Shown piece by piece: positions 6,953 through 63,300 of a DNA stretch of 64,000 bases (within the stretch, counting starts at the first letter, position 1; every line of letters begins with the position of its first letter). The DNA is taken from positions 2,294,001 through 2,358,000 of the forward strand of contig JAYJMM010000112.1 in NCBI GenBank assembly GCA_037349105.1, written 5' to 3'. The notes beneath the pieces were generated by a model that worked only from the letters and a program-made list of their open reading frames with translations, searched no databases and had not been told where the DNA came from. This stretch comes from Limnomonas spitsbergensis. Its lineage: Eukaryota; Chlorophyta; Chlorophyceae; Chlamydomonadales. The position numbers were made by a program, and so were the translations under genes.

Positions 6953-9900
6953 ATGCAACATACCATGCTGCGCCACAAATCAACGAGCCTGCCACGAACC
7001 TCCGGCCATGCACTGCAGCAGCAGCAGCAGGCATGCATGCATGGCGGCAACACCCACTGTTGCATGGGTGTAGACGCGCTTGCAGGCCGCGCAGCTGGGA
7101 TGCCATCAACACGGCAAGCGATGTTGGATCTCGATCGCGGCAGGGCCCTTCTTCAATCGAGATCTACGGATCTAGCTCGCTGCGCACCTGCTACGTTTTC
7201 GCAAGACAGAGGTCCCCCATGTAGCAAGCAGCGGGACGGTGGGGCAACGAGGATGGAGCGCTTTGATCTGCCATCAGAGGAGGCTTTGGCACCGACCGGG
7301 CCTGCAGGCATGCTGTCGAGAAGAGCCCAGCTGGGAGCTCTGATCCTTGGGGTGAGAAGCCCATGCATTGCATGCCACAATATGGTTATGGGGTCCCGCA
7401 TGGGTGGGTTCTTGTTGAGTTATTGTGGGTGTTGCATCAGGTTGTTGCATGATGTGTACGGTAATCAGTGTTGGACCTGATCAGCCCAGTGGTGGCTACA
7501 GCGTCTACCCAGCATGCAGGCATGCTGTCGAGAAAAGCCCAGCTTGGAGATCTGATGCTGGGGGTGAGAAGCTCATGCATTGCATGCCACAATATGCTAA
7601 TGAAGTACCGCATGGGTGGGTTCTTGTAGGTGTTGCATGAGGGTGTTGCACGAGGGTGTTGCATGAGGGTGTGTTATCGGGTCTTTTGGGGTCTTTGGCG
7701 GCATGGAGTATGCGGTGGGGTGCAATGCACACCTTGTGTCACAGATACCATCTACAGTAGACCAATGGGTAGCCATTAGCCAATACCGTTCCCGCTCGCC
7801 TCACCGCTCACGCATTCCCCCCTCACACCCCTCTCCACTCACGCACCCCACTCCCCGACGCCCCTCAACCCCTCCCCACTCACGCACCCCACTCCCCAAA
7901 CCTCCCCCTTCTCCCCTCCCCACTCATGCACCCCACTCCCCGACACTCTCCCCTCTCCCCTCCCCACTCACGCCCCCCACTCCCCGACCCTCCCCACTCT
8001 CCCCTTCTCGCTCACGCATCCCACTCCCCACCCCCACCCTGCAGTTTTCGTCAGCTCAGACCACCCACAACCACGCCTGGGCCGCACCTGCCGACCGCGC
8101 AACCGCCGCCGCCCCAGTCCTCCCCGCCGCCGCTGTGCCCTCTGACGCCGCCGGCCGCAGCACCTTCAACCTGATCACAGGCACCCTTGAGGGCTTTGAG
8201 TGGCCGCTCGACGACGCCGCTGAAAACACCGTTGACGTGCCCATCCAGATGTACCTACCAACCGCTACCGGCCTTCATGCCGAGCAGCAGGCTGGTGTTG
8301 CCGTCGTGTTTTCCCCGGGCTTCCTTGTGGCCCCCTCGGCCTATGCTTCGTACTGCGAGGCGCTGGCCGGACACGGCATCACGGCGGTGTCGTATGGTAA
8401 GCCATGGGAGAGCCCGACGCAGCCGATGGACGACGTGCACAGCCGGGAGCTGCTGAGGGCGGTCATGGACTGGGCGCAGCGGCAGCCAAGCGTCGAGGCG
8501 TGCGTGGTGGACGGTAGCGGCCGCCGCAGCAGCAGCGGCAGCGGCAGCTCTGGGAGGCTTGGCAGTGCGACGGACGGCGGCAGTTCTGCCGCTGGCTCTG
8601 CCTGGGAGAAGGGGCGCAGCGGGGGCAGCGCAGGCGGGCCGTCATTCGTGCTGGCCGGTCACTCTCGTGGGGGGAAGATCAGCGTGCTGGCAGCTGCTGC
8701 AGACCGTGCCGCTGGCCGCCAGCGTGTCTCCAGCCTGCTGCTCCTGGACCCGGTGGATGCCTCCTTTGACTCTGTGGAAGGGCCCAGGTAAGGGATGTAG
8801 AGTGACCGAGTTTCCCAAAACCTCTCATGGCAAAGGTTTATTTTCATTGGTTTCCGTAGACCCAGTGGATGTGTTGTGAGTGGGGCCTAGGTGAGTGAGG
8901 TGGCAACCGAAATCCGCCCCTGGAATTCAGTCCAGAGATTTTTTCGGTGCCCCAGTGATGAGAGGTGGCACACAGAAATCTGCAAGGGCTCCAGAACAAA
9001 TAAAGCAGAACAGAAAAGAGGCTCCCCTGTCTTTAAAACAGCAGGTCCCTTGAGCCGCCAATCAAAGCCGGGCCATCGTAAAGGCAGCTGTGCTGTTTTG
9101 AAAAGCCAATGCTCAAGCGCCCTGGAATGGCAAAGGGCCCATGTGAGAAGATTCGCCCCACAGTGTGGATACATCTCATCATTGTGCAATATACCGCATT
9201 TTGCATGTTGCTGGGCAGACACCGCTGGGCCTGGCGGAGTAGTTGCTACTAAGTCAAGGCAACCACCCACAGCCTTTTGCGAAAGGGCCAGGCAGTGCGA
9301 ACGGGGGGGAAACAAGTCACAAGAACCAAAAACCTAAAACATGTGACACGGGGGCAAAAACCAATACAAAGCAGCACAGCGGGGTGGCGGGGACGAAACC
9401 TAGAGCGGGCAAAAGCGAGGGGCCCAAGCAGCAGGGCTTGCTGCTCCTACCCGCCAGCCTCCCCGCTGCCCCCATCATGTTCCTCTGTCATAATACCTTG
9501 TCGTGTTACGGTATGTTCCCCCGTTGCCCCCCCTTGCAGGTTCCCCTCGTCACTTCCCGCTTTGAAGGCCTTGGTATCCAGCGAGCGGAAGCAGCCTGGA
9601 GAGGTGACGTCAGCTGATGCAAGTGCTCCGCCTCCAATGCCTGTTTTGACAATTGGATTTGGCAGGTGAATGTCCTAGGATGGGCAGGGAAATGGTCTGA
9701 AGCACGCGTGTTCCTGGAATCCTAGGATGGGCAGGGAAATGGTCTGAAGCACGCGTGTTCCTGGAATCCTAGGATGGGCAGGGAAATGGTCTGAAGCACG
9801 CGTGTTCCTGGAATCCTAGGATGGGCAGGGAAATGGTCTGAAGCACGCGTGTTCCTGGAATCCTAGGATGGGCAGGGAAATGGTCTGAAGCACGCGTGTT

Positions 9901-12033
9901 CCTGGAATCCTAGGATGGGCAGGGAAATGGTCTGAAGCACGCGTGTTCCTGGAATCCTAGGATGGGCAGGGAAATGGTCTGAAGCACGCGTGTTCCTGGA
10001 ATCCTAGGATGGGCAGGGAAATGGTCTGAAGCACGCGTGTTCCTGGAATCCTAGGATGGGCAGGGAAATGGTCTGAAATTCTTATTTTTCTGGTATGAAC
10101 CTATCAACCTCTGAAAATGTTGATTTCTTGAGGAAGGTATTTATTAGTGAGTGGTCTGGATTGACATTTGGTAGAGCTTATTTTTCCGGCTGGTCGGCCA
10201 CCTTCAGCGGGCCACACCTCTGGAGATGAAAGGCCTGAAAAGGACCAAAACTGGACCAGCCTCCAACCGACGGCCAAAGTTGCATAAGGCCTCCTTCCAG
10301 TTGGTAGTTGGTAGCTGAGTAGCTGCTAAGCGGATTCTAAGCGATGAAATGTCACCTGTATGAAACAAGTTTGATGCATCTATGTAAAATGTTTGTTTCT
10401 TTTCTCAAGCATTTGGGACACAATCCGACACGTGGACTTTCGCGTTTCTTGTTCATGCTGGTGTTGCTGCTGACTTATTTTTGCTGGTGGCATGGCGGGT
10501 GTTGCTGGTGCTGGTGGCATGGCGGGTGTTGTTACTGGTGTTGGTGCTGATGCTGATGGTGTTGCTGCCTTTCTCATGTTGAGCCAAGCCTTGTGTGTCA
10601 CCTTGCACTGTTCAGGAATGGAGACTGCATCCCTCGCCGCAGCAACTACCTTGCATTCCAGGCAGCGGCAGCGGGGCCGGAGGGGGGTGATGCTGCAACG
10701 TCCGCCTTGATTGTGCTGAAACAGGTGACGGGGACAGAGGGTAAATTATTTCTGTTCCAGACAGCAACCGCGGGGCCTGATGGGTGGGGAGGGGGTGTAA
10801 GAGTGTGCTAAAGCGCTTGGCGCAGAGGTAGCGAAAGATACTCGGAAAATGGAACGTGAGGGAATCGAACACCTCTAGAACCGTCCACCAGACGGATGTC
10901 CCGGGAGATATAGGAGACCTGGGGTTTGAGGGTTTACCCACTTGGTACGAATTAGCGCTCGGAGATCTTACGTCAGCATCGCTGCGTAGTCTCTTACAGG
11001 GGGGTATGCAGACTCAACTAAGGGGGGGGGTCCTGCCTCATCCGCCTTTCGTGAGTCCTGTTTCAGAGATAGGCCATGGAGGGTCTTAGATTCCACGCGG
11101 GCAATACTTTTAAGATGTTGGGCAAACACCCGCCAAATTGGTTCATGGTCAAGGGGGCGTGTGCCAGTCTTTTGTAGTGCACTCCAGACCCTCTTCAGGC
11201 GGCCACCAATAGGCCACTGGGGACCCAAACTTGACCGGCGGCGGCCGGCGGCCTGAGCAGCAGGCTTGCTAATCCAGGCTCCCTTGGCGGTTGGCCGTGA
11301 TGCAGCTGAAGTGTAGCCGAAGCGTGCAAAAAATACAGTGGCCCCAAGCTTGCTATGGGTTCATGCCCAGGACGTCAGGCTGGCTCATTAGGAGCACAGA
11401 CACAAAATAGTACCAGAGCCACCTTGTCAAAGCATGGGGGGTCATTCTGGAACCACCGGAATGCAGTCCTTTTTGTGTCTTATTATTTGCCTCTTTGCAA
11501 CCGGTATATTAACGTTTTTACGAAGATGGCAGCCAGAGTGTTTCCTCTGTTAAAAATGAGTAACGCAGCATGCCAACGATTAAACCCGTGATTTTCTCTT
11601 CTTGTGTGCGCTTCAGGTGGGCCACTTCATGTGCTGAATCATCGTTGACTCTTGCAGCATGACTGCATGAGAGGTACCGTATTTCCTTGTCCTAAAATTC
11701 CACATAAAATGCAAATTCACGTGTGCCATGTGTGTTTTATGCCTGTGTTTTTAGGTGGGCCACTTCCAGATGTTGGACGAGCTGAGCTTTCTGCAGCGCA
11801 GCGCGTGTTCGTCAGGGAAGGTGGACGAGCCGGAGGTCAGGAGGCTTATCAAGGAGCTGATGCTAGCTTGGCTGCTGCCACCGCTAGCACCTGCGGCCGC
11901 GGCATTGGCTACAGGTGGCCGCATTGCTTCTTCTGAGGTGCCGGCTGGAGGGGGCCCTGGTGATCAGATGAGCGTAAGGATGGATCTGCTGAAGGGAGCA
12001 TGTGCTGCTTCCAGTCTGGAGTGCCAGCTGTAG
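6953..12033 (+). CDS. CLH: Chlorophyllase (alpha/beta hydrolase), five exons
   Basis: Chlorophyllase removes phytol from chlorophyll, giving chlorophyllide. Proposed exons, all in phase: 6953-7351, 8045-8787, 9540-9665, 10616-10724 and 11755-12033, about 551 codons. The lipase motif AGHSRGGK (near 8655) supplies the nucleophile Ser, LLLLDPVD (near 8740) the likely Asp, and VGHFQMLD in the last exon the likely His; this trio is typical of chlorophyllases. VLTIGFG and CIPRRSNYLAF match the conserved C-terminal half. The protein is longer than plant enzymes because of a Ser/Gly-rich insert before the GHSRGG motif and a long N-terminus. Exon 1 ends MLSRRAQLGALILG, a twin-arginine-like thylakoid signal after a presumed chloroplast transit peptide. 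The start is the least certain part. The spacer between exons 1 and 2 is C-rich repeat and exon-edge duplication. Confidence 0.85.
7303..7640 (+). repeat. Tandem duplication of chlorophyllase exon 1 3' edge plus donor
   Basis: About 7303-7430 and 7513-7637 are two copies of the same block. The first contains the real exon end (MLSRRAQLGALILG) and its GGGGTGAGAAG donor. The second, inside the intron, still reads MLSRKAQLGDLMLG up to the same GGTGAGAAG donor and then the same downstream intron sequence. Confidence 0.8.
7785..8040 (+). repeat. C-rich degenerate repeat in chlorophyllase intron 1
   Basis: Units built on CACTCACGCACCCCACTCCC repeat with variation. They run directly into the acceptor CACCCTGCAG at 8044, so they may act as an extended polypyrimidine tract. 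The open frame across them is probably not translated. Confidence 0.7.
9674..10078 (+). repeat. 47-bp minisatellite at the donor of chlorophyllase intron 2 (exon 3)
   Basis: About 8.6 copies of a 47-base unit starting CCTAGGATGGGCAGGGAAAT, virtually identical to each other. The array starts eight bases after the splice donor at 9666. Such uniformity implies recent expansion or homogenisation. Confidence 0.92.
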
Positions 12034-13610
12034 TAATATGGCCAGCAGTGGCAGCAGCTGCGAGTGCTGGCGTGTTTTTATAGAAGTGCAGGCCGTTGGG
12101 GGCCGCTGGGGATAAAATTAGCACACAGATGGATTTGCAGCATGGAGCGTTTGCCGCTAACGGCCTCGAGTGCCAGATGCTGTGACAGTGGCCAGCAGTG
12201 GCAGCAGCTGAGAGTGGCGGCGGTGTTTATCGGAGAAGTACTAGACGTTGGGGGTGCTGGTGATGAGATGGGTGCACAGGTGGATATATTGCAGTGGGAT
12301 TGTGTCATTCTGATGCATACATGACAGCATGGCACACAGGTGGATATGCTCCAGTTTACCAGGGCAGACTTGGGTGGGAGGCTCTGACTTTTGCTGAGGA
12401 CGTGGTGGGCATTGTTGAGGCCTAGTTTTTTCTTCTCTTTGCCCCCTTGGGGAATAGGCCCCCCCTCTTGTTTTTTGTTTCTCTCTTGCTTTTTTGTTGA
12501 AGGCTTCAAAGGGGTGGACATGCTTCGGCCTTCGGGTTGACTTTCCATTTCGGGGGGGGGGGAGGGGCATTTCTTTCTCCCCTGAGGTTTGGAGCTTTGG
12601 TGCACGGTCAGAATGGCATGACAGGTAAATCAGCGTTCTGAAGGCTGCTGGTTATTGAAACTCAACTCGTACGTCCATGTCATAACACCTCTGGGCCTTG
12701 TTCAAGTTTCAAAAAGGCTCGGGCGCCCAACTGTCTGGTTGGGAAAATTGGAAACTAAAGGCAAGAGGGAAGAAAGAAGGAGAGGAAGATAGGAAATGGA
12801 TCATGCCCCCCCAGGAAGGAAAGGAGGTCCAGAAATTCCCCAGCCCCTCATAAGAGTCTAGCGACTCTAGCCATGAACAGCAGTCTAGCCTTGAAAATTG
12901 GAATTCAACTCTTATGTACCTATGGGCACATGATGGTTAATTGCAGAGCTTCCGAAAAGATTGCTCTGCTATTTAAAGGAAAATAAGCATGGAGATGGTT
13001 TCCCCGCAAACAGGGCATGGCACGCTCATGATGATCTCCTCAGAGCAAGACCTGCAATGTTTGAAGGGACAGAGGTCAGATCACATTGATCTCAAACAAT
13101 CTTCAGGAATTGCGACTGTGCATGTGTCAGCCAAGTGAAAGCCCTCAGAGCAGGTCCGAAGGTACTTCATTCAATTGAGAATGGAGATGGATGCACGAGA
13201 CAATCCCAACCATACTAAAACAGGAATCCAGAGCGGATTGATCCACAGCTTCTCCGCTCTAGCATCACTATTTCTGGTGTTTCAGCTACAATTCAGCTAC
13301 ATGGCTATGCCCGTGGGAGCCTGGTACAGCAAGCCCTGCTGCTAGGGCCACTTGAGTGGGCGGGCCGGTCAAGGCTTGTTTACATAACGCCCAATGGTGG
13401 CTACCCACCACCCTGCCAAAGGTGGTGCGGCGCTCACCACAATATGCTTTCACTCTTTCCACACTATTTCCCCCTTTCCCCTCTTAACTTTCCTTCCCCC
13501 AACTTCAATGTGGGGCGCCCACGCGGCTGAGCCTTATGCACAGGGCCCTGGGGTGTAACGTCACTGACTACACAATACCGTGATGCAACCGACACGTCAC
13601 CCTGGTTGTT
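11590..13610. repeat. Right arm of the large inverted duplication
   Basis: This arm is the reverse complement of 1-2430. It contains the real last exon of the chlorophyllase (plus strand) and the last intron and exon of the RING gene (minus strand), which converge tail to tail. 12034-12970 between them is non-coding, with repeated GGCCAGCAGTGGCAGCAGCTG blocks (near 12040 and 12190) and a SINE-family copy near 12690-12740. Confidence 0.85.
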
Positions 13611-40307: not shown

Positions 40308-41848
40308 CCTATCAAAGCTTAGAGACGCAGCAGACTACACAGACTGATGCCAACTCGTCATCAGTTGAGCACGGTTTCACACTTTAAATTCGTACTCCAA
40401 GCAACTTGTAGCCTCTCGATCGAAGACTTCTATTCATCATTTTCAAGATGGCATGCACCGCTGTTTCCTCATGAGCAGCAACCCATGCATGCCGACATGT
40501 ATGCCAGCCAAGCTTTTGAAACCTCACCCTGGCGGTCTGCGTCCCCTCGAAGCAGCAAGCCAGCTCGTGCCACGATTGCACCACCGTGCATGGCTTGCAG
40601 AGGGCAGACATCTCCCCAAGGCGCCCTTGGTCAGCCCTCTAGCATGTGTGAGGGACCCCGCGTCACTCCTGCAAGGTCCACCGCCTGCTTTCGATTTCCG
40701 AGCAGACACCGCTGACAGCACCCAGCGGATTGTGAGCAGCGTCCACCCCCAGCTTCAAGACTTGGTTGATGATGGTGAGCGCGGCATGCGCATTTCATGT
40801 GTAGATATGCACACATACACGGACACACACACACACAAAAATCTCAGCCATTCATGAAGGTCAGAGGCTCAGAGCAGCAGGTACGTGCTAAGCCGATACG
40901 TGCGTACACTGTGACTACGCGCACCATGTTTGATAGTGGTGTATAGCGAATCTGGAAGCTACAATTCAGCTACATCACAGCTTGAAGCCAGAGGGGGCTG
41001 GTGCAGCAAGCTCTGCTGCTTGGGCCACCAGCTGTTGGCTTGTACATGTTTGGTCCCCATCCGCCCAATCGTGGCTGCCCAAGAGCCTGTGTAAGCCGGT
41101 CTGTTGCACATGAAAATAAGCTCAGCTGCACATTGAATCAGGCCAAGATTGGCTGAGCAGGCGAAAGGCTATTTGGTGCATACCAACTAAGATACTGCCC
41201 CAACAACAACAGCAACATGCACGGCCATTATAATTCCTATCATTCTCTAGCTGCCTACGATATTCTCTGAATCTCCATTCTTCACTGCCTGGTCCTTTTA
41301 CCCAATGGTTCTGGTGGATGCATAGACCAGGCAACAACAAACAAAAACAGCCGAGAGTGACCGCACTCGCACATACATTTACATTTCATGCTCGCACACT
41401 ACAGCAGCAGCAGCAGCAGCAAAAGATTCTGCTGCTTGGTAGGTCCTCGACCAGCGAGCAGCAGCGTTCACCCGACCTGACTTTGCTGCAATTCCGCCTG
41501 TCCATCTCTCTGCCATTTTTGTATGCCCTTCACACACCTGGCTGACCTGGCAGGCACCCTGATGGTCTGGCAGCGCCCGGCAGGCTACACTGAGCACCAT
41601 GCTCACTCTTAATTTCATTTTCACACATGGGTGACCTGGCAGGCACTCTGGTAATCTGGCAGCGCCCGGCAGGCTACACTGAGCACCACACTCACTCTTT
41701 TACCACCTTTCACACCCGGTGACCTGGCAGGCACTCTGGTGATCTGGCAGTGCCCGGCAGGCTACACAGAGCAGCACACTCACTCTTGTACCGCCTTTCA
41801 CACCCGGTGACCTGGCAGGCACTCTGGTGATCTGGCAACGCCCGGCAG
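40308..41848. other. Region between divergent V-ATPase D and TraB genes
   Basis: No coding region seen apart from weak open frames. 40800-40850 repeats the (CA)n plus AAATCTCAGC words of V-ATPase exon 2 (40071-40110). 40955-41100 is an inverse copy of the GTAGCTGAA repeat family. The TraB first exon(s) and promoter should lie in 41100-41560 but were not identified. Confidence 0.45.
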
Positions 41849-41860
41849 GCTACACTGAGC
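41545..41860 (+). repeat. About 90-bp tandem copies of a TraB exon 5' edge
   Basis: Four units containing CTGGCAGCGCCCGGCAGGCT followed by ACACTGAG. The last one (about 41830-41860) carries the acceptor GGCAG/GC of the first recognised TraB exon; the earlier three lie in the presumed upstream intron or leader. Confidence 0.75.
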
Positions 41861-44800: not shown

Positions 44801-47800
44801 TGGTAAAGATGATTATTGAAGAAACGACACTGGTAAAGATGATTATTGAAGGAACGACACTGGTAAAGATGATTATTGAAGGAACGACACTGGTAAAGAT
44901 GATTATTGAAGGAACGACACTGGTAAAGATGATTATTGAAGGAACGACACTAATAAAGATGATTATTGAAGGAACGACACTGGTAAAGATGATTATTGAA
45001 ACACCGTGCCGCTACAGGGACGGTTTCCATATGGAATGCCAGTGCAGTAGATTCGACTAGCCTTCCCTCAAAAGTGATACTGTTACGGGGCGAGGGAATC
45101 ATTAAAAATACGAATCATCAGTTGTCCTCACCAGTTTCAGAGGGAAATCAAGAATTTTTGTCCAAATTGGGGTCTGAGGGAAGCATTTAAGAAACAGCTG
45201 TTTCCGAACCTGCGGGACGGCAATTCAAATTGGTATTGGTCCTGTTATCTAAAGCTCGCTTCAGCTACAATTCAGCCATTTCCCGGCTAGCTGCCTGGGT
45301 CGTACATCGCGCAGACAGACGTGAGACCTGCTGCTTGAGCCCCCGGCTGAAGCCCCGTCCTTTTTTTGCCAATCGGCCTAGTGTTGGTTGTGGGGGGCAG
45401 CGCGCCGCCAGTGGTCTTGTTTGGCACCAGAACAGCTCTCGTCTGGTCTAGCCCACACCAGGCCTAGGCAGTGGGCTATGCTCACACTGCCGGTATCTAT
45501 TTCCCTGCTGTTCTGCCAGAACGAAGAAGGCCCCTCTCCCAATCGCCCCTCGGACTCTCCTTTGTCCCTCCTTGCTCCCTTAATGCAATCCAGCTGGGCG
45601 TTCAGGGCAGAGGGAAGTGCTTGGCGGCTGCCTGCCTACCCTAAGACCCTAAAACCCTAACACCTCAAGATCAGCCGCGTGTCTAGGGCAGAGGCGTGTA
45701 TGTGGCCATTGACTGCAAAGCCCTAAATCCTAAGCGCTTAACCCTAGGACAGAGGCGTGTACGTGGCCATTGACTGCAACGCCCTAGACCCTTAACCCTA
45801 AACTAGGACAGAGGCGTGTATTTGGCCATTGGCTGCAAAATCCTAAACCCTTAACCCTTATTTAGGACAGAGATGTGTATGTGGCCATTGACTACAAAGC
45901 CCTAGACCCTTAACCCTTAACCCTAAACTAGGGCAGAGGCGTGTACGTGGTCATTGACTACAAAGCCCTGGACCCTCATGCCTGCAGGCGAGCTGGGCAG
46001 GCATTCAAGGGCAGGCAAGTTTGTGGATACTGCCATTCCCTCAATCCACCCCCCCCAGTACCCACAGACCGTACCACGCAGACCGGCTGGGCGTGCTGTG
46101 GGGAGATGAGTTTATGGCTGTTGCGTGCTAATACCCAAAGCCGTAACACCCTGGTAACTCCCTGGTAACACCCTGGTAACACCCTGGTAACTCCCTGGTA
46201 ACTCCCTGGTAACTCCCTGGTAAGTCCCTGGTAACTCCCTGGTAACTCCCTGGTAACACCCTGGCAACTCCCTGGTAACACCCTGGTAACTCCCTGGTAA
46301 CTCCCTGGTAACTCCCTGGTAACTCCCTGGTAACTCCCTGGTAACTCCCTGGTAACTCCCTGGTAACACCCTGGTAACACCCTGGTAACTCCCTGGTAAC
46401 TCCCTGGTAACTCCCTGGTAACTCCCTGGTAACTCCCTGGTAACTCCCTGGTAACACCCTGGTAACACCCTGGTAACTCCCTGGTAACTCCCTGGTAACT
46501 CCCTGGTAACTCCCTGGTAACACCCTGGTAACTCCCTGGTAACTCCCTGGTAACTCCCTGGTAACTCCCTGGTAACTCCCTGGTAACTCCCCTGGTAACA
46601 CCCTGGTAACTCCCTGGTAACACCCTGGCAACTCCCTGGTAACTCCCTGGTAACTCCCTGGTAACTCCCTGGTAACACCCTGGTAACTCCCTGGTAACTT
46701 CCTGGTAACTCCCTGGTAACTCCCTGGTAACTCCCTGGTAACATCCGCTCAACAGCTAGGCATTCAGGGTAAAGCCAAGGCCGAGGCTGCTATCTACCGT
46801 GCCCTTAACCCTGAAAGCCCCCAAACCCTAACCCTGACCCCTTCAGACCAGCTCGGCGTTGAGGGTGGCGGTGAGTTTGTGGCTGCGAGGCAGGCAGCCG
46901 AGGAGGTGGGAGCGCAGGTTGTGTTGGGCGACCGGCCGATTGAGATCACGCTGGAGCGGGCGTGGGAGGCGCTGACGTGGAGGCGCCGGGTGAAACTGTG
47001 CTGGGAGCTGCTGCAGGCTGGCATGACTGGGCCGGCGGATCGGGAGGTGAGAGAGAGAGGCTGAGAGACAGGCAGATGCTTTGCTGGGGGCATCTGTAGG
47101 CTGGCAAGACGGGGCCAGCGGATCGGGAGGTGAGAGAGAGAGCGAGAGAGAGAGACAGGGAGATGCTGTGCTGGGAGCTTGTGTAGGCTGGCATGACGGG
47201 GCAAGCGGATCGGGAGGTGAGAGTGAAAGAGAGAGTGAGAGACAGGGAGTTGCTTTGCTGGGAGCTGGTGCAGGCTGGCATGACGGGGCAGGCGGATCGG
47301 GAGGTGAGAAAGAGAGAGAGAGAGAGAGAGAGAGACAGGCAGATGCTGTGCTGGGGGCTGCTGCAGGATGGCATGCCGGGGCAGGCGGATCGGGAGGTGA
47401 GAGGCTGAGAGGCAGGCAGCTGGGTGGAGGGTAGCTCTTGTAGGCAAGCAGGGGGGAGGGGAGAAAGTCTGATTGGCAGGCAGCTGGGGGGCGAGAGAGA
47501 AAGTCTGATTGGCAGGCAGCTGGGGGGCGAGAGAGAAACTGATTGGCAGGCAGCTGGGGGGCGAGAGAGAAACTGATTGGCAGGCAGCTGGAGAGGGGAG
47601 AGAGAAACTGATTGGCAGGCAGCTGGAGAGGGGAGAGAGAAACTGATTGGCAGGCAGCTGGAGAGGGGAGAGAGAAACTGATTGGCAGGCAGCTGGAGAG
47701 GGGAGAGAGAAAGTGATTTGCTGGCAGAGGAGGGGAGAGAGAGGCAGGCTGAGTTGCGGCCATCTTGGGGCGGCGAGAGGGACTGAAAGGCAGAGACGCT

Positions 47801-48877: not shown

Positions 48878-48910
<33 letters not shown>

Positions 48911-48985: not shown

Positions 48986-49022
<37 letters not shown>

Positions 49023-50343
49023 GGTGTGAGGGGAGAACCGGTATTATACTGTATTTGTTTAGTTCCTACCGCTTAGATATTTCATGATCTATGAAAGAGA
49101 GGAGGGGAGGGGAGCTATGTTTTTTTTTTATTATTATTATTATTATTACCAGTACCGGTGATTGCCGGTTCACAGTTTTTCCTGCATTATCATCACCGTA
49201 GACGCTCTTTGCCTCCGCACGAAATTAATGTTGTTTCGCCGTCGCGCCTTGTGAAACCCCCAACTTCTGCGGAAAATGCAACTTGTGGGACGTCAAAAAT
49301 AGTTTTCCAGCCAAGCGCGCTTTAGCGAACAACTATATTTATTTCTCGTTCGCGGAGGCAAAACAAGTCGACGGTATTAATTTTATGAGGGGAGGCATGG
49401 TATGGCATTTGATTTGATTTGGTACCTACCGGTAGGGATCTTTCATATTTCTCAGGGGTGGAGGTGTGCCGCTCAGCTTGGGAGAGCCCTTCAATTCCTG
49501 CTCAGCTTGGGAGAGCCCTGCCATTCCTGCTCAGCACATATCATGAAAAGTAAAGCCTCCGTTTGTCTTCAAATCAGAAGTCCGGCGCACGAAAGCCCGG
49601 GTCCCACTCAGGCGGTGTCCTTACAAGTCAGTAGTCATGGTCACAGGTGCTCCTCCACGGTCATGTCAACACAATAACCTCACCTTCCGACTCCCATTGC
49701 GCAATCGCAGACGTTGGGCTCATCACGTACCAATGCATCATGACCAGACTGTCCCAGCTCCGGCCTGCCTCATGCGCCCCTTGCGTGCCCGCCCCGCCTG
49801 ACCAGAAAACGCTCGCTATGCCCCTCTGGTTCCCCGCCCCGCCGGTCCAACTGCCCTGCCCGACCCCGCCCCTCCAACCGCCCTGCCCCGCCCCGCTCGT
49901 CCAACACCGTCTTTCCCAGCCCTGCCCGTCCGACTGCCCCGCCCCACTCGTTTAACTATCCGCCCGACCGCCTGCCGCTCTCCCCTTGTACATGTACCTA
50001 AACCCTAAACCCCAAGCCCTCCCCTTGCAGACTTGTAGCTTAACCCTAAACCCTAAACCCTCCCCCTGCAGACATGTACCTAGCCTGGAGCTTGAAGCGC
50101 AGCAAGGCCGTCAACGGGGCCAAGTCGGTGGTGGGCGTGGTGGGCCGAGGCCACATGCGGGGCGTCGTCTTCGCGCTGGGCCAGGACTCCTCAGGCCTCC
50201 GCTTCTCCGACTTGGTGGGCGGCCGGAACAACAAGGCGGAGAGGAAGCGGCTGGCTGCGCAGGGCGCTGCCAAGTTTGCGCTAGAGACTGCGCTGTTTGC
50301 GGCGCTGTACTACGCGTGGACGGTGTGGGCACCAGGGACGTGA
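41849..50343 (+). CDS. TraB-domain protein (TraB/PrgY/GumN family), five recognised exons
   Basis: Exons in phase: 41849-41958, 43349-43706, 46847-47046, 48348-48465 and 50072-50343, about 351 residues; a short N-terminus is probably missing upstream. Family motifs: ELVYLVGTAHVSRRSAVDV, AVRPCAAVVELCKSR, GAQVVLGDRPIEITLERAW, LIFERDMYLAWSLKR and VVGVVGRGHMRGVVFALG. A hydrophobic C-terminal helix (FALETALFAALYYAW) suggests membrane anchoring, as in eukaryotic TRABD/TRB relatives, some of which are organelle-surface receptors. The biochemical activity is unsettled; the His-containing GTAH and GRGH motifs resemble the metalloprotease-like core proposed for the family. Exon 2 has a poly-Gln run and a Gly/Ala-rich insert. 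Introns total over 7 kb, almost all tandem repeats, many copied from the exon edges. Confidence 0.85.
42043..42445 (+). repeat. 59-bp minisatellite containing (CCCTAAA) telomere-type motif
   Basis: About seven units of TAGTGTGTTGTCCTGGTGTG, TTTGTGGCCCCTCTAAG and three CCCTAAA motifs, nearly identical, in TraB intron 1. The motif is the plant-type telomere repeat, but it is interrupted by unique spacer in each unit, so this is not a chromosome end. Confidence 0.9.
42480..42860 (+). repeat. Simple GCCTCTGGCC/GCCTGTGGCC repeat
   Basis: Degenerate 6-10-base units of CTCTGGGCCTCTGGCC type in TraB intron 1, after two blocks of CCCTATCA(C/A)GCC. Confidence 0.75.
42985..43348 (+). repeat. Tandem copies of TraB exon 2 acceptor edge
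   Basis: About six units of roughly 65-75 bases containing TTGCTTGCTGACACAGGCCG followed by TGCACCCTG. The last is the real acceptor (ACAG/GCCGTGCGCCCT at 43348/43349). Preceding copies near 43264, 43197 and 43126 are clear; those near 43060 and 42995 are decayed. Confidence 0.8.
43985..44278 (+). repeat. 42-bp minisatellite, seven copies
   Basis: Unit TTTTTAGCTTGTTTCACCTA followed by CATTGTTCCACTTCTGGGGCCA, in TraB intron 2. The open frame across it (FSLFHLHCSTSG-type) is incidental. Confidence 0.9.
44288..44530 (+). repeat. About 102-bp tandem repeat, 2.4 copies
   Basis: Units begin near CTCCCCCAATCAAACCATGG and include GACAGCTGCCGGAAGAACGC, in TraB intron 2. Confidence 0.85.
44611..45000 (+). 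repeat. 30-bp minisatellite, exactly 13 copies
   Basis: Unit GGAACGACACTGGTAAAGAT followed by GATTATTGAA, with only two variant units. A multiple of three, it is open in frame as GTTLVKMIIE repeats, but it lies inside TraB intron 2 without a matching splice context, so I treat it as non-coding. Each unit carries CTG/GTAAAG, a donor-like word. Confidence 0.93.
45660..45975 (+). repeat. Five degenerate units with CCCTAAACCC and GTGTACGTGGCCATTGACT
   Basis: Units of about 60 bases in TraB intron 2. Each contains AGGCGTGTACGTGGCCATTG followed by ACTGCAAAGCCCTA and then telomere-like TTAACCCTAAACT. In one frame each could read GVYVAIDCKALDP, so a lost or cryptic exon is possible. Confidence 0.8.
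46140..46745 (+). repeat. 11-bp satellite CTCCCTGGTAA, about 55 copies
   Basis: Nearly pure array with ACACCCTGGTAA variants, in TraB intron 2. All three antisense frames are open, which produces long spurious proteins (ELPGSYQGVTR repeats). Confidence 0.95.
47047..47405 (+). repeat. Four tandem copies of TraB exon 3 3' edge with donor
   Basis: The real exon ends GGCGGATCGGGAG/GTGAGAGAG at 47046. Copies ending near 47131, 47218, 47308 and 47399 repeat TGTGCTGGGAGCT, then GGCTGGCATGACGGGGCA, CGGATCGGGAG/GTGAGA. Each also keeps an acceptor-like TG(T/C)AG/GCTGGC, so each could be used as a 30-base micro-exon. Confidence 0.88.
47430..47720 (+). repeat. About 35-bp array GAGAGAAACTGATTGGCAGGCAGCTGG-type
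   Basis: Seven or eight units of GAGAGAGAAACTGATTGGCA plus GGCAGCTGGAGAGGG in TraB intron 3; similar words continue, decayed, to about 48005. Confidence 0.88.
48478..49150 (+). repeat. (ATT)n microsatellite mixed with GGTGTGAGGGGAGAACCGGT units
   Basis: About eight blocks of ACGGTGTGAGGGGAGAACCG separated by variable ATT runs, starting 12 bases after the TraB exon 4 donor. Near 49085, GATCTATGAAAGAGAGGAGG echoes the real exon end GATCTTTGAAAGAG/GTGAGG at 48452-48471. Confidence 0.9.
49150..50071 (+). other. Distal part of TraB intron 4
   Basis: Includes a short duplication (CTCAGCTTGGGAGAGCCC near 49475 and 49500), C-rich CCCGCCCC repeats at 49780-49980, and telomere-like CCCTAAACCC between three copies of the acceptor TCCCCTTGCAGAC before the exon at 50072. 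Confidence 0.6.
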
Positions 50344-50995
50344 TGTGTGAACATACCGGGGACATCATGTGTGGACAGTGTGGGCGCCAGGGACGTAATG
50401 TGTGGACAGTGTGAGCACCAGGGACGTGATGTGTGGACACACTAGGGACGTTCTGTTCGGACGGTGTGGGCACCAGGAACGTGATGTGTGGGCACACCGG
50501 GGACATGATGTGTGGACAGTGTGGGCGCCAGGGACGTGATGTGTGGACTCCGAGGACGTTATGTGTGGACGGTGTGGACGCACCGGGGACGTGATGTGTG
50601 AACACACTAGGGACGTTCTGTGCGGACGGTGTGGGCACCAGGGACGTGATGTGTGGACACACCGGGGACATAATGTGTGGACGGTGTGGGCGCCAGGGGC
50701 GTGATGTGTGGACACTGAGGACGTTACGTGTGGACGGTGTGGACGCACTGGGGACGTGATGTGTGGACACATCGGGACGTTATGTGTGGACGGTGTGGGC
50801 ACTTGGATCATGATGTTTGGACGGTGTGGGCACCAGGGACGTGATGTGTGGACGGTGTGGGCGCCAGGGACGTGAAGTGTGGACACACACCGGAGATGTT
50901 ATGCGTGGACGGTGTGGGCACTGGGATCATGATGTATGGACAGAGTGGACACCAGGAGCGTGATGTGTGGATGGTGTGCACACCTAGGGCAGGAA
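50310..50995 (+). repeat. About 55-bp minisatellite made from the TraB stop-codon region
   Basis: Units of GGACGGTGTGGGCACCAGGG followed by ACGTGATGTGTGGACACACC. The first unit is the coding end itself (TGG ACG GTG TGG GCA CCA GGG ACG TGA); about a dozen degenerate copies follow in the 3' flank. Confidence 0.88.
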
Positions 50996-51334
50996 GGGTG
51001 GAAGGTGTGGGCTCCACTTTCTCACTGCAGCCGTACGTGGCCCATCTGCAGCACGGATGTTTTCACCTGACTATCGTGCCAAGCGCTAGGCCTAATGATA
51101 GCCTGGCCAAGGCTCCCTGCGACACCCTGCTTTGACAAACCAAATCAGGGGATTATTATGTCCTGCCTAGCTTGGGGTTAATGAGTGGGCTTCCTGAATC
51201 TGCTGGATCTAGTGAGATCTTCTGGATCCAAGGGGATCTGCTGGATCTAGGGGAGAAAGGGAACCGAAGATGGTTTTGGTGTTGAGCACATAATGGTTGG
51301 GGTGGGTTCCTGAGTTCAGTCCACCTTGCACCCT

Positions 51335-51560
51335 TTGTCTCTGAAGGGGGATCCAGGATTATGGACGTACAGTCAATGAGTTACACGTTTGAAGGGGGAT
51401 CCAGGATTATGGACGTACAGTCAATGACGTTACACCTTTGAAGGGGGATCCAGGATTATGGACGTACAGTCAATGACGTTACACCTTTGAAGGGGGATCC
51501 AGGATTATGGACGTACAGTCAATGACGTTACACCTTTGAAGGGGGGTCCAGGATTATAGA
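51335..51560 (+). repeat. 46-bp tandem repeat, four copies
   Basis: Unit GAAGGGGGATCCAGGATTAT followed by GGACGTACAGTCAATGACGTTACACCTTT. The end of the unit is the SINE-family terminus TCAATGACGTTACACC, so the array grew from a SINE edge. Confidence 0.88.
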
Positions 51561-51659
51561 CGTGCGGTGTATTGCCTTTTGAATAGCAGGGACAACAGTA
51601 TACCTGTGGTATTTTCCCCTTTTTCCTGCCCCTTTGTGTTTGTTTCGTTCTTTCCTCCC

Positions 51660-51920
51660 AACCCTTAAGTTAGGCGACCCACGCGGCCGAGCCTTTTTGA
51701 GCAGGGCCCAGGGGTGTAACGTCATTGACTAAGGTCCGTTTGCTTGTTTCCTTCCGAATGATTAGTTGGGCGGCCACGCAGCCAAGCCTTTTGACTTGAG
51801 CCCAGAGGTGGAACGTCATTGACGAAGGTCCGTTTGTTTGTTTCCTTCCAACTGATCAGTTGGGCGGCCACGCAGCCAAACCTTTTGAGTTGAGCCCAGG
51901 GGTGTTACGTCATTGACTAA
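51660..51920. mobile_element. Three consecutive SINE-family monomers next to the LINE
   Basis: Monomers at about 51665-51730, 51770-51825 and 51860-51920 share GGCCACGCAGCCAAGCCTTT and GTGTAACGTCATTGAC. They are separated by AAGGTCCGTTTGTTTGTTTC spacers, which are themselves repeated. Confidence 0.7.
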
Positions 51921-57300: not shown

Positions 57301-60300
57301 GGAGATGGAAGGAGCGAGGAGAGGAACAGCAGCTCCTGCTGCTGCGGTGTGGGTCCTTGAAGCAGCTGGGGAGGCGGCGGCGGCGGCGACCGCATGCGTA
57401 CATGGGGCGAGGCGCCACACATTGAGGAGAATGGTGAGACAGAGGACGGCAGTAAGGCCAATGCATGCGCTGCCTTTCCAAAGAGGGCGGCGGCCTGCAG
57501 GGCGGATGCTGCAGCCCCAGGAGCAGGCACTGCGGCTAGGGCTACCGTAGCTGCTGCTGCTGCTGCTGATGATACTGCAGCAACTCCGGGGAGAGGGAAC
57601 CCCAAGGCGGGGGCGGGGGCAGGGGCAGGAGCGGGGACGGGGACGGGGGCGGGGAACATCACGGCTGTGGCAGTTGATAGCGGGGACGTGCTTGGAAGAC
57701 AAGCAGCGGGACAGCGGGTTGCAGCCACTGCCCGTCGCCCAGTCAGCTCTGACTCATTGCCTGGGAGCCTCACAGCTGATGCCGCCCAGCGTGGGCTTGA
57801 AGCGTGCGTACGCCTGGCTGCGGCACGGTTGGCCGCGGGCCTGTGTAGGTGCCTGGCCTGCTGGTCCGTGTGGGAGAACGGGACGCCCGCAGTGCAGTTT
57901 GAGGCGCGATTACGAGGGGTCCTACGAGGAAGCCGGAGGGAAGCTGCCGGGAGCTGACCCCAGTGGCGGGGCCAGGACCATGCCTCGCAGTGACGCCCAT
58001 CGTAAGGGAATGTGCTGTTGGCTGTTGAAGCAGCAGAAGCTGTGGTGGCGGCAGCAACGGCCGCAGGCTTTGTAGCAGCAGGTGCAGCAGGAGCGGGCTC
58101 GGAAGCAGGAATGGCAACAGCTGACAAGGTGCGGTTCCCGCCTGGCTGCGGCTGCTGCTGTTGTTGCGGGAAGCTTGACAAGGATGCGTCCAGAGACAAG
58201 CGCTGGTCGTAGGGGAGCATGGGCGGAGGGAGGTCCACGACCCAAACCATGACAGCTGCAGCTGGATTCCAAGACTGCAGCTGCAGTAGTGACGCATGGT
58301 CGCCGCCGCAGCTGCAGCTACTGCGGTTGGCCTCTAGGCCGGAAGCGGCAAGGGCGGCTGGGCAACAGGGCCGCGCGGCCGCGTAAGGCGTGCCCCGAGC
58401 CTGCGCCTCGGCAGCTGAAAAAACGGCGTTCGCGGCGGCCAGGGCCGCAAGGAGTTGGATTTCTTGCCGCTGCAGGCGCACCAAGCGACGCTGCTGGACC
58501 TGCAGGAAGGAGCAGGAAGGAAGGGGCAGCATGAGCGAGGGTAGCGTCTAGCGTCAAGAGCGGCATGTGGGGTTCTATTTTCCGGGCAGGTGCAGCTGCC
58601 TGAAGAGACGCTGCTGGGCCTGGTTTAGGGTTAGGGTTAAGGTTAAGGGATCAGGAAGGAGGCAGTACGAGCTGCAGCGAGAGTAGCGTCTAGCATTGAG
58701 GGCGGCGCGTGGAGTTCTGTTTTCCGGGCAGCTGTAGCTGCCTAAAGAGAAGCTCCCGGGCCCGGGGCAAACATCAAGGTCATGCGAGGCGATTGAAGCC
58801 AGGGGGCAGAATCAAAGGTTGCGAGGGTGGCAGGCGAGGGGGCAGACAAGGGGGCAGAATGCACTGTTGCGAAGGTGTGCAAAATCGGCTGCTGTGAGCG
58901 ATCTGCATCTGCAGGATGGCAGGTTGAGTTGCAGAGGGCAAAGGCGGCGGAAGGTATGTGTGGGGGGGGGGGGAAGAGCGACCGGATCTAAATGTAGGGG
59001 GGTAAGATGCACTTTCGGGTTAAGCTTTCAGGGTTGGAAAGTGGGGAAGCCCAAAATTCCAGTGCTTCTTTTTCCCAGACTCAGTTACAAGACAGTTATA
59101 CTCTGGCCTCTGGCCAGAGCACCCAGTTGTGGCCAGGCGTAGGCCGGCCCTAGTTTGGTCCCAATGGGGCCTTCAGCGGCCGTTGGGCGACCTGCCGAAT
59201 GAGGGCTTGTAGCCGAAAAAAGAATCACTGCCGGGTTGGTGGAGTTACGGCCAGAGATCATGTCAGAGAGTAAGGAGTCGTGCGGCATAATTAGTTGTGC
59301 AGCCTGTTCACACCTCCGATCATAATTAAAGGTTTAGTATTCAGGGTTCAGGGTTAAGTGGAGTGGGAAAGAGCCAGCGCGATGGACCTACCTCGATTCG
59401 GACTCGCATGATGCCTAGCTTTGCCGAATAGCGCTGGGCCAATGCGGTGAGGTACCCGACGGCGTAGGTGGCAGGAATCGGGGCTGGGGCGCCTGCCTCG
59501 CCCAGGCCTCCAGTGAGCGGGGTGATTGGAATGGGGGAGCCTGCAGCTGCTGCTGCAGGGGGTAAAGGCGCCTCCGGCTTGCTGCCAGGGGGCAGCGGCG
59601 CCCGAGGGTGTCCGTGCAAAAAGTGCGCGGGCGAGGCGGCGACAGAGGCGGGTGCAGCGTAGTAGCTTCTGTTCTGTACTGGTGCTATTCCCATGTGCAA
59701 CCGGGATAATTTCTCCCGCAGCTGCAGTAGACAGGGACCGAAAAGCAGGTATGCGATCAGGAGCGCCAGGACATTGAAAATGACCCATTGACACATCGAC
59801 AAAATCTCGGTGGGGCCCGTCATCCCTTCGTCACCCTGGTCGCGACGGCCGCCGCCGTCGCCGGGGCGTGGGACCGCTGACGGTGCCTTGGGAGCTGCAG
59901 CCGCTCCTGCTTCCCGGGGCGGAGAAAGAGGCACGGGCGGGTCTGGCACCGCTGCCGCCGCGGCCGAGGTTGCCCTCATGAGTAGGAGCAGGTACGGGGA
60001 AGGCGCAGGCAGGACATCCAGGGGGCCCACCTCCCCGAGGAGGAGCGGTGCCGGAGGGGCAGGCGGGGCCAGGCGGGGTCGCCGAGCGGCAGCTGCTCCC
60101 TCGAGGTGCAGCAGGGACGGCGGCTGGGCAGAGCGGGGCGGCTGGGCGACGGCCGCCTCCGCGGGTTGGAGCGGGGATGGAGCAGGCAGGACCAAGCGTG
60201 CCGGCTGAGCGGCAGCTGCTCCCTCGAGCTGCAGCAGGGACGGCAGCTGAGCCGAGCGGGGCGGCTGGGCGATGGCCGCCTCCACGGGTTGGTGCGGGGA

Positions 60301-63300
60301 TGGAGCAGGCGCAGGCGGGCCGGGCAGGCCGGACTCGCTCAGCTGCTGCGGGCGGTCCTGTAGGGATGTGCAGCAGGGAGGCATGTGGCGCTGAGGAAAA
60401 AGGGGGTGGGGGAGTTGGGTTTAGGGTTAAGGTGAATGTGTGGAACAGGGTTTGTGTGAAACCTCCGGGTCTGGATGTTTATTCGGTGGCCGCGGGATTG
60501 TGGCTAGGCGAGCGAAGTCTGCAGCGGCTGCAAAATGTAGCCCAGGTACCTAAAACAATCACAGGTCCCGAATACTGGTATCAGACCCTGGTATCAAAAC
60601 AAGTCCTAGGCACTTCCCGAAGGACACTTCCGTCCTTTCGGAACTCTCTGCCACGAGGGCACGCCCGACTTGCATATCTCGAGCCATGGACAGCCCATCA
60701 ACAACCCATCAAGCTGCCCGTCACATGAAAAGCACGCACGCACACACGAAAAGCAAGAAAAATGAACAGCCCATCAAGCTGCACATCACATGAAGCATTC
60801 CACACGAGAAGCAATCAAAGCACAAAGGACTAGAGGGTGGCTCAGAGATTCCTTTTCGGTTCCGAATCAACCGTCGCCCCATAACCGCCAAAGCCTCACA
60901 TTTGTTTCCCCCGAGGGCGAGTCTTATCCGGCCTACATTTGGTGGCCTAAGCAGCATGGCTGGCCGCGCTTGGGGCCTCCAGGATCCAGCTGGAGGCCGG
61001 TAGGTAGCTGAAATGTAGCAGACATGTAACAAGAGGCCGGCAGGTACCTGAAATGTAGCTGACATGTAACAGGAAGCCGGCAGGTACCTGAAATGTAGCT
61101 GACATGTAACAAGAGGCCGGCAGGTACCTGAACTGTAGCTGACATGTAACGGGAGGCTGGCTGGTAGCTGAAATGTAGCTGACAGGTAACGGGAGGCCGG
61201 CAGGTACCTGAAATGTAGCTGACATGTAACGGGAGGCTGGCAGGTAGCTGAACTGTAGCTGACATGTAACAGGAGGCCGGCAAGTAGCTGAAATGTAGCT
61301 GACATGTAATGGGAGGCCGGCAGGTAGCTGAACTGTAGCTGACATGTAACGGGAGGCTGGCAGGTAGCTGAAATGTAGCTGACAGGTAGCTAGAGGCCTG
61401 TAGGTAGCTGAAATGTAGCTGAACTGCTGCAGAGCCAAGCAAACGAAAGTGCCTCCCAGCCCAGCACGCACTTCACTGGCACCCAACCTCACCTCCACTG
61501 GAGCATCAGTCAGCAGCAGCCGGTCGCGAGCTGCCGGCAGACGCGGTCGAGGCAGCTGCTGGCGGTCGCCGGCCCTGCCCACAGGGCGCGGCAAGAATTG
61601 GGTGAAAAAGGAGGGCTGCTGCTGCTGCTGTAGCTGTAGCTGCTGCAGCTGCTCCTGCAGCCTCTGCTGCTGCTGCAGCTGCTCCTGCAGCCTCTGCTGC
61701 TGCTGGCGCTGCAAGTGCCTCAGCTGTTTCTGCCGCTGCCACTGCTGCTTCCCCAGAGGCTGCGACTGCAAGGTGTTTCCCTGCTGCTGCTCCTCGATCA
61801 GCTGGTCCAGCAGGGCGCGCGTCGCTTCATGCGCGCTGCCCGTTTGGCGCAGGCGGTGGTCCAGCTGCGTAATCGTCGCACCTACAACAGGGTGAGTAGT
61901 GTTCTGGGTTGGAGGGGGGAAGCGGGGGGTAGGAAGGAGGGGGGGGGATCAGCCTGGGTAGGCAAATTCCCACACAGATCCAGAAGGTTCTGTTGTTTAA
62001 AATGGTGGGTGGGTGGTGTGGGGGGGGACGGGGCGGTGGCAGGAGGTGCATGATGGTGGCAGCTTGTCAGGAGAACTTTTGAGAACTTGTAGGCGCACTC
62101 AAGGAAGAAAGTAAGCTATGCTCCATGGGAGGCGTGAGAGTTAAGGAAACAGCGCAGCCTGGGCCGAAGCCACATCCGCGCTGTTACCATCAGCGCGCGT
62201 GTACCTGTATCACAACTTAACCGGCAACGGTGAGCAACCTTTAAAGGGCGAAATAAATTTTCCCGATGCTTGACGGGCGAAAAGGAAGCCTTCCCCAGAG
62301 GTAGAGGGGAACTGGGGGGGGGAGACGGGGGGCTAATGCTCTTACAAATTCCACTTAACCACTCAAAGCCCTTAATGGAGGGGCCAGGCAGAGCAAACAG
62401 GGGGGGGAGACCTAAAGCCCTTAACGGAGAGGCCAGGCAGAGCAAACAGGGGGGGAGACCCAAAGCCCTTAACGGAGGGGCCAGGCAGAGCAAACAGGGG
62501 GGGAGACCCAAAGCCCTTAATGGAGGGGCCAGGCAGAGCAAACAGGGGGGGAGACGCAAAGCCCTTTACGTAGGGGCCAGGCAGAGCAAACAGGGGGGGA
62601 GACCCAAAGCCCTTTACGTAGGGGCCAGGCAGAGCAAACCGGGGGGGAGACCCAAAGCCCGTTACGTAGGGGCCAGGCAGAGCAAACAGGGGGGGAGACC
62701 CAAAGCCCTTTACGTAGGGGCCAGGCAGAGCAAACCGGGGGGGAGACCCAAAGCCCGTTACGTAGGGGCCAGGCAGAGCAAACCGGGGGGGAGACCCAAA
62801 GCCCTTTACGTAGGGGCCAGGCAGAGCAAACCGGGGGGGAGACCCAAAGCCCTTAATTATAGTAATTAATTAATTAAGGGCAGGGGGAGGCAGCGGAACC
62901 TAGCAGGGCGAGGCTGCAATGTGAGAATTGGTAAGATGGGCGCAATGCGAACAGGCAAACCAATTGATATATTTATACCCTCAACCCTGAATAAGCACAC
63001 CACCGCCCTCGCCACCGCAGCCCCATTTTCCTGTTGTTTCCCGCCCATCCTTCATTCCTTATCCAGCAGTGGTAGCATGGAAGATATTTCAACCTGAACC
63101 CTGAATCAGCACAATGCCGCCCTGTTTTCCCCGTTGTCGCAAGCCACACCCGTCCTTCATTCCTCATCCAGCAGCGATATCTTCCATGCACTCATCCTAC
63201 ACCACTTCATTCAACTTCCCTGGCTAATCTGTCCGTGGGCCTAATTCCCTAATTCCCTGGCTAATCTGTCCGTGGGCCTGCTTGTCCAGCACCCAAAGCC

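What the first reader, a model, noticed from the sequence alone, without database searches (positions are those of the whole stretch)
7303..61430. Introns grown from duplicated splice junctions across several unrelated genes
In at least five genes here, intron repeats are copies of the adjacent exon edge and splice site: donor-side copies downstream (chlorophyllase exon 1, LIL3 exons 4 and 5, TraB exon 3), acceptor-side copies upstream (TraB exons 1, 2, 3, 5; chlorophyllase exons 4 and 5; the large gene at 58499; RING gene B), and one copy of a stop-codon region. Repeats range from fresh to nearly erased. This suggests a genome-wide process that keeps duplicating splice junctions, for example repair of breaks at R-loops or stalled forks at exon ends, and offers a route for minisatellite birth and intron lengthening. 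I do not know of this as a named system.
Basis: partly seen in the sequence, partly recalled or inferred. Interest (0 to 1): 0.9.

Follow-up and report, generated by a model that had tools for sequence, protein, structure and literature searches.

The report
Exon edges copied into neighbouring introns
In this likely green alga, ends of exons and their splice sites have been copied, sometimes many times over, into the introns beside them; this is likely a by-product of a general habit of its introns to grow by local tandem duplication, and it resembles the 'mirages' described in amphioxus genes.

Summary
The window lies in a 260-Mb genome with many chlorophyll a/b-binding genes. Outside the window the same occurs in chaperonin and kinesin genes. 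Over 88 introns, exon edges match their own intron at score 15 or more at 6 donors and 14 acceptors, against a rate of 0.001 in foreign introns. A kinesin gene carries nine copies, 88-89 bp apart, of a conserved exon end with its donor; its paralogue has one. But junctions are copied about as often as random positions inside the same introns (donors 7 against 7.8 expected, acceptors 8 against 7.9; 72 introns), and the rate is flat from intron through junction into about 36 nt of exon. So the process most likely ignores junctions. Looser measures leave room for a two-fold excess; copies spaced under 65 bp are depleted at junctions. Junction-spanning minisatellites are already named 'mirages' in amphioxus, and repeats near intron ends were reported in green algae.

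The parts
7264..7666 (+). Chlorophyllase-like gene, exon 1 end + donor + intron start (7264-7452) and its copy in intron 1 (7478-7666)
   Evidence: self-BLAST 82% over 191 bp; 64/70 across the junction at 7351|7352
11609..11770 (+). Chlorophyllase-like gene, exon 5 acceptor (exon starts 11755) and a decoy acceptor copy 138 bp upstream
   Evidence: 16/17 identical, 12 exon bases
11935..12294 (+). Duplication of the chlorophyllase stop-codon region (not a splice junction)
   Evidence: 11935-12140 with 12083-12294, 73% over 214 bp
34681..34910 (+). LIL3-like gene, exon 4 donor (34836|34837) and a decoy copy 56 bp downstream
   Evidence: 23/29 identical; score 17 against a maximum of 12 in comparison introns
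35026..35745 (+). LIL3-like gene, exon 5 donor (35160|35161) and degenerate copies in intron 5
   Evidence: 40/53 for the best copy; five copies with exon bases
41533..41860 (+). TraB-family gene, 88-bp array (3.7 copies) ending across the exon 1 acceptor (exon starts 41849)
   Evidence: TRF; 40/42; single locus in the genome
42964..43382 (+). TraB-family gene, 70-bp array ending across the exon 2 acceptor (exon starts 43349)
   Evidence: TRF, self-BLAST, 52/62
46051..46885 (+). TraB-family gene, exon 3 acceptor (exon starts 46847) and a degenerate decoy copy 766 bp upstream
   Evidence: 47/69
46996..47403 (+). TraB-family gene, 87-bp array (4.7 copies) of exon 3 end + donor (47046|47047) + intron start
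   Evidence: TRF; 60/70; single locus in the genome
49990..50082 (+). TraB-family gene, 41-bp array crossing the exon 5 acceptor (exon starts 50072)
   Evidence: TRF; 35/40, 10 exon bases
50311..51016 (+). TraB-family gene, array crossing the probable exon 5 donor (50322|50323)
   Evidence: self-BLAST; 35/36, 6 exon bases; donor position is my reading
58465..58765 (-). Acceptor at 58499 (minus strand) of the gene whose open frame is 55902-58547, with a copy 120 bp upstream
   Evidence: 28/37; duplication 58509-58623 with 58648-58765
9673..10077 (+). Contrast: intron-only array (47 bp, 8.6 copies) that starts 8 bp after the chlorophyllase exon 3 donor and does not cross it
   Evidence: TRF; donor position 9665

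Best explanation
The repeats are partial copies of exon edges with their splice sites, lying in the adjoining introns, and they most likely arise when a general local tandem-duplication process that lengthens this genome's introns happens to straddle a junction, rather than from a process aimed at junctions. Step 1 (inferred): a stretch of DNA, mostly 70-140 bp where junctions are crossed, is duplicated head to tail, by slippage, break repair or unequal exchange; the data do not say which. Step 2 (shown as geometry, inferred as cause): if the stretch spans a donor, the second copy falls downstream, inside the intron; if it spans an acceptor, the first copy falls upstream, inside the intron; the outermost, exon-joined copy keeps the reading frame, so the change is predicted to be near-neutral. 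Step 3 (shown): some pairs have become arrays of up to nine copies, copies decay without preferential loss of their AG or GT, and paralogues differ in which junctions carry copies. Step 4 (inferred): duplications with copies closer than about 65 bp across a junction are removed by selection, because near decoys would disturb splicing, or seldom arise in coding sequence.
For: Own-intron copies far exceed foreign introns: score 15 or more at 6/88 donors and 14/88 acceptors, foreign rate 0.001. Total rate at junctions equals intron interior: 32-mers at 24/32 or better, donors 7 against 7.8, acceptors 8 against 7.9, 72 introns; spacing 65-300 bp, every copy in range counted: 7 (6.9) and 8 (7.0), and likewise at 22, 26 and 28 of 32. 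Rate roughly flat through the junction (3-9 of 60 introns per position in the intron and at the junction), 4-9 of 60 as far as 36 nt into the exon, then 1-3 of 60. A stop-codon region shows the same. Two TraB arrays have one locus each in the genome, so they are local copies, not a dispersed family. Kinesin L045 has nine copies of exon end + donor, paralogue L046 one. Over 15 homologous intron pairs, 6 junctions have a crossing copy in one paralogue only and 1 in both. AG kept in 34 of 48 acceptor copies (32.0 expected), GT in 29 of 39 donor copies (26.1 expected). Tandem repeats cover 24.4% of intron bases (19.4% without the window) and 2.2% of exon-match bases; the 22 introns with arrays have a median of 946 bp against 297 bp for 67 without (outside the window 16, 821 bp, and 61, 297 bp).
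Against: Looser, gapped alignment gives an acceptor excess: 12 against 6.3 expected (sd 1.7) in 47 introns outside the window, 14 against 9.0 (sd 2.1) in 56 with it; exon-only matching outside the window gives 12-14 acceptors against 5.6-7.2. Split by nearest spacing at 26/32, long-spaced junction copies are 12 against 6.6 expected (P 0.012; outside the window 9 against 5.5, P 0.054). So up to a two-fold preference is not excluded, though slower decay of the exon half could cause it. No transcripts were available; junctions come from profile matches plus GT-AG rules. The kinesin L045 intron was added after it was seen to carry copies.
Confidence: 0.78

Rival explanations
1. Junction-targeted duplication: something about exon ends (R-loops, stalled forks, chromatin) makes them preferred sites of tandem duplication.
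For: Acceptor excess with looser measures; long-spaced junction copies 12 against 6.6 expected; published excess of short tandem repeats near intron ends in Chlamydomonas and Volvox.
Against: No excess in total at any of four identity cut-offs, nor in the 65-300 bp class when every copy in range is counted; flat profile through the junction; no excess at 30/32 or better (4 against 7.3 expected); a stop-codon region is duplicated as well.
Confidence: 0.13
2. Intron birth by tandem duplication of an exon segment holding AGGT (Rogers model, recalled; cited in PMC3087553): the repeats are remnants of the event that made the intron.
For: Same raw process, tandem duplication in genes; proposed on the basis of mirages.
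Against: Both kinesin paralogues have the intron at the same place but only one has the donor array, so there the intron most likely predates the copies; copies are one-sided and partial.
Confidence: 0.04
3. Mobile or dispersed elements (introner-like) inserted at junctions.
For: Repeats at intron ends in many genes.
Against: Units hold each gene's own exon edge; the two TraB arrays searched have one locus each in 260 Mb (that search skips very common words).
Confidence: 0.02
4. The copies are genuine alternative exons or splice sites in use.
For: Many decoys keep intact AG or GT; all nine kinesin donor copies keep CAG|GCAAGT.
Against: Copies hold an exon edge (median 41 bp of exon in the 23 best crossing copies); intactness is no higher than neutral expectation; the 89-bp kinesin unit is not a multiple of three.
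Confidence: 0.03

Closest known systems
'Mirages' of amphioxus (Adh3, globins BflGb6 and BflGb9, troponin C, PGBD5); PMC3087553 (abstract and passages seen) and PMC3902484 (one passage seen)
   Same: Minisatellite-like tandem duplications that span exon-intron boundaries, at donors and acceptors, many copies keeping AG or GT, copy number varying between haplotypes (there) or paralogues (here).
   Different: Different kingdom; here seen across chaperonin, kinesin, TraB, chlorophyllase-like and LIL3-like genes with a measured rate of about one junction in ten of introns of 200 bp or more (15 of 144); splicing and allelic instability untested here; here no sign that junctions are preferred overall.
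Intronic tandem repeats of Chlamydomonas reinhardtii and Volvox carteri, PMC3887541 (abstract and passages seen)
   Same: Green algae with tandem repeats densest in introns and more frequent near intron-exon junctions.
   Different: That study used units of 1-50 bp and, in the passages I saw, did not report units that include the exon edge; here the junction-crossing units are mostly 70 bp or longer.
Intron gain by tandem genomic duplication, e.g. the potato RdRp case PMC4974935 (search listing only)
   Same: Tandem duplication inside genes.
   Different: Here existing introns grow; no new intron is shown.

Membership tests
Mirages (amphioxus) | Minisatellite-like tandem repeats whose unit spans an exon-intron boundary | tested here: met
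   TraB 46996-47403 and 41533-41860; kinesin L045 nine copies
Mirages (amphioxus) | Both 5' and 3' boundaries can be duplicated | tested here: met
   7 donors and 8 acceptors of 72 introns at 24/32 or better
Mirages (amphioxus) | Unit lengths of tens to about 160 bp | tested here: met
   Offsets 41-212 bp; amphioxus 10-72 and 150-160 bp
Mirages (amphioxus) | Many, not all, copies keep AG or GT | tested here: met
   34 of 48 acceptor and 29 of 39 donor copies
Mirages (amphioxus) | Regular splicing is not disturbed | not testable with these tools
   No transcripts available
Mirages (amphioxus) | Copy-number instability between alleles or in the soma | not tested
   One assembly only; paralogues differ at 6 junctions
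Intron gain by tandem duplication | Intron absent before the duplication | tested here: not met
   L045 and L046 share the intron, only L045 has the donor array; one pair looked at in detail
Introner-like elements | Near-identical copies in many unrelated genes | tested here: not met
   2 arrays searched, 1 locus each

The most novel reading that the evidence does not exclude
Intron growth in this alga is driven by a junction-blind tandem-duplication machine, and the spliceosome sets the survival rule: whole runs of intact decoy donors or acceptors are tolerated as long as they stand at least about 65-70 bp from the true site, while closer copies are purged. The arrays would then be a natural, genome-wide assay of how the spliceosome tells a true site from perfect copies of it.
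Probability: 0.25. Interest if true: 0.68.

Novelty: new member of a known kind. Interest (0 to 1): 0.52.

Why it matters
It carries a curiosity known from a handful of amphioxus genes into what is most likely a green alga and turns it into a countable process: about one junction in ten, in introns of 200 bp or more of this sample, carries a nearby copy of itself. That makes two questions testable: how introns lengthen, and how splicing machinery picks the true site when several intact copies stand beside it. It also warns gene finders, since profile matches and splice models run into the decoys.

Tried and rejected
Selection against decoy splice sites: the acceptor alignments suggested that AG is preferentially lost, but counting all copies gave 34 of 48 intact against 32.0 expected; rejected. 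A marked acceptor bias: seen with 30-base exon queries and gapped 60-base queries, absent with ungapped 32-mers; left open. Recursive splice points: the best crossing copy has AG|GT or AG|GC at the junction in 2 of 9 donors and AG|GT in 2 of 14 acceptors; not pursued. A chlorophyllase exon 2 donor copy that I thought I saw by eye scored 11, reached by 4 of 60 introns; rejected. PMC6823432 was opened for 'spanning exon-intron' and that passage concerns mitochondrial group II introns; irrelevant. Pfam on ten single exons or frames named only the chlorophyllase family plausibly; the spliced TraB exons gave PF01963 at 1.2e-17, the spliced LIL3 exons only 15.1 bits, below cut-off.

Limits of the sample: G000 is unnamed. 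20 LHC loci were taken from 111 matches because they looked multi-exon, 16 chaperonin loci from 72 matches, 4 kinesin loci from 139 matches for small profile gaps. PF00133 was searched but nothing was fetched for it. Neighbouring exon matches with profile gaps over 14 were skipped unless filled: 9 of 22 gaps were used, chosen by eye for gap fit, exon size and agreement between paralogues. Called introns with low score were dropped (4 of 45; 41 kept). One kinesin intron was added after the overlap rule was relaxed, which makes 89. Introns under 200 bp were left out of the interior comparison (72 of 89 used). The short-spacing depletion rests on 14 introns that hold such repeats.
Full report
WHAT THE WINDOW IS. 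The window is C112:2294001-2358000 of a 260,226,709-base, 124-contig genome with 111 matches to the chlorophyll a/b-binding family, hence most likely a green alga (inference). A chlorophyllase-like gene (PF07224, 24.1 bits, just under its cut-off of 26), a LIL3-like gene and a TraB-family gene (spliced exons PF01963, E 1.2e-17) hold most of the reported copies.

CHECK OF THE OBSERVATION. I read 7000-64000 of the sequence, listed tandem repeats and self-alignments, and tested each named junction against 60 introns. Eleven of thirteen named copies hold; the chlorophyllase exon 4 acceptor and RING gene B do not. The clearest window case is TraB 46996-47403: 4.7 copies of an 87-bp unit made of the last 51 bases of exon 3, the donor and a GA-rich intron start.

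IS IT GENOME-WIDE? I fetched stretches around LHC, chaperonin (PF00118) and kinesin (PF00225) genes and placed introns from consecutive profile matches with GT-AG sites. Outside the window, exon edges are strongly copied into their own introns in chaperonin and kinesin genes; of the 17 outside-window introns listed with a score of 13 or more, 16 are in those two families and 1 in the LHC family. Over 88 introns (56 paired, 20 gap-filled, 12 from the window), the last or first 30 exon bases match the own intron at score 15 or more at 6 donors and 14 acceptors; against foreign introns the rate is 0.0010.

THE BEST SINGLE CASE. In kinesin gene L045 the exon end that codes KHIPYRDSRLTFLLQ (translation; I recall a conserved kinesin motif of this kind) is followed by CAG|GCAAGT, and a unit of 88-89 bp holding exon end, donor and intron start stands nine times in a row, nearly identical. 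Its paralogue L046, with 94% identical sequence over that exon, has a single copy with CAG|GTGATC. Both have the intron. So the exon edge was amplified, or the array lost, in one lineage after the gene duplicated. Over 15 homologous intron pairs from paralogous genes, crossing copies were found in one partner only at 6 junctions and in both at 1. Two of the six are not clean differences: the L038 intron and the 778-bp L035 intron hold exon-edge copies that hardly reach into the intron side.

IS THE JUNCTION TARGETED? The proper control is the intron itself: the same 32-base query centred on random interior points, looking one way only, as a donor or an acceptor can. In 72 introns of 200 bp or more, junction-crossing copies at 24/32 or better number 7 donors (7.8 expected) and 8 acceptors (7.9 expected); the near-equality holds at 22, 23 and 26 of 32. 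For spacings of 65-300 bp, counting every copy in range, it is 7 (6.9) and 8 (7.0). The profile across the border is roughly flat: 5-8 of 60 introns from the interior through the junction on the donor side and 3-9 of 60 on the acceptor side, 4-9 of 60 as far as 36 nt into the exon, then 1-3 of 60 at 48-60 nt. That is what randomly placed units of about 100 bp would leave (inference).

RESULTS THAT PULL THE OTHER WAY. With exon-only queries the acceptor count outside the window (47 introns) was 12-14 against 5.6-7.2 expected, and the donor count 3 against 5.5-7.1. With gapped 60-base queries it was 12 acceptors against 6.3 and 6 donors against 6.2. Splitting by nearest spacing gives an excess of long-spaced junction copies (12 against 6.6, P 0.012; outside the window 9 against 5.5, P 0.054) and a lack of short-spaced ones (0 against 6.3, P 0.0001; outside the window 0 against 3.3, P 0.003) at 26/32. 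At 22/32 three short-spaced crossings do appear (41, 43 and 45 bp), and the LIL3 exon 4 copy stands 56 bp away in an intron too short for that test. The two classes trade against each other, because interior arrays of short units hide longer spacings. An excess of up to two-fold at junctions therefore stays possible; the exon half of a junction copy decays more slowly than an intron copy, which would produce some excess without targeting (inference). The lack of short spacings could be selection against near decoys or simply the absence of simple repeats in coding sequence; the repeats concerned lie in 14 introns.

FATE OF THE COPIES. AG is intact in 34 of 48 acceptor copies against 32.0 expected from flanking divergence, GT in 29 of 39 donor copies against 26.1. 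Decoys thus seem to drift neutrally; copies within an array are not independent. Tandem repeats cover 24.4% of intron bases in the sample (19.4% without the window), 2.2% of exon-match bases and 7.5% of the fetched loci as a whole. Introns with arrays are longer (median 946 bp, 22 introns) than those without (297 bp, 67 introns), and array length correlates with intron length (Spearman 0.63; 0.56 outside the window), as expected if arrays lengthen introns, though long introns also offer more room.

MECHANISM. A local tandem duplication that straddles a donor leaves its extra copy downstream, one that straddles an acceptor leaves it upstream; in both cases the extra copy is intronic. This accounts for the geometry without any aim. 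The stop-codon duplication in chlorophyllase shows the same at a border that is not a splice site. Which repair or replication error makes the duplications is not shown by these data.

WHAT IS KNOWN. Tandem duplications of intron-exon borders are called 'mirages' in amphioxus; they are reported not to disturb regular splicing, occur at both borders, vary in copy number between haplotypes, and were proposed as a route to new introns (PMC3087553, abstract and passages; PMC3902484, one passage). In Chlamydomonas and Volvox tandem repeats of 1-50 bp are densest in introns and more frequent near intron-exon junctions (PMC3887541, abstract and passages). In the listings of my eight searches (at most 20 rows each, titles and abstract starts, in a library without most subscription papers) I saw no report of mirages in an alga.

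VERDICT. A real feature, found in several unrelated gene families across this genome; a new member of the mirage kind in a new kingdom; most likely the visible edge of a junction-blind duplication process that lengthens introns, with a possible spacing rule that is worth testing.

Noticed in passing
72 introns of the sample; in the window 42040-42440, 45638-45976, 49990-50082: Telomere-like C-rich motifs sit on the sense strand at intron 3' ends: AACCCT 25 sense and 0 antisense in the last 100 bp, 2 and 6 in the first 100 bp; 18 of 72 introns have AACCCT, CCCTAA or CCCTGAA in the last 100 bp against 4 in the first 100. They may serve as branch point and pyrimidine tract; similar motifs lie inside several TraB array units.
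   Followed up: partly
   Followed up: no
1686-2416 (-) with 11592-12400 (+): A second, partial copy of the chlorophyllase 3' end in three pieces, 76-89% identical, including the exon 5 decoy acceptor region.
   Followed up: partly
9673-10077: A 47-bp unit in 8.6 copies, 100% identical by TRF, in a chlorophyllase intron: probably a very young array.
   Followed up: no
34464: LIL3-like intron with a probable GC-AG donor (AAG|GCAAGA); kinesin L045 has CAG|GCAAGT in all nine copies.
   Followed up: no
G000 contigs C109, C110, C41 and others: Many near-equal chlorophyll a/b-binding matches, several with one internal TAG.
   Followed up: no
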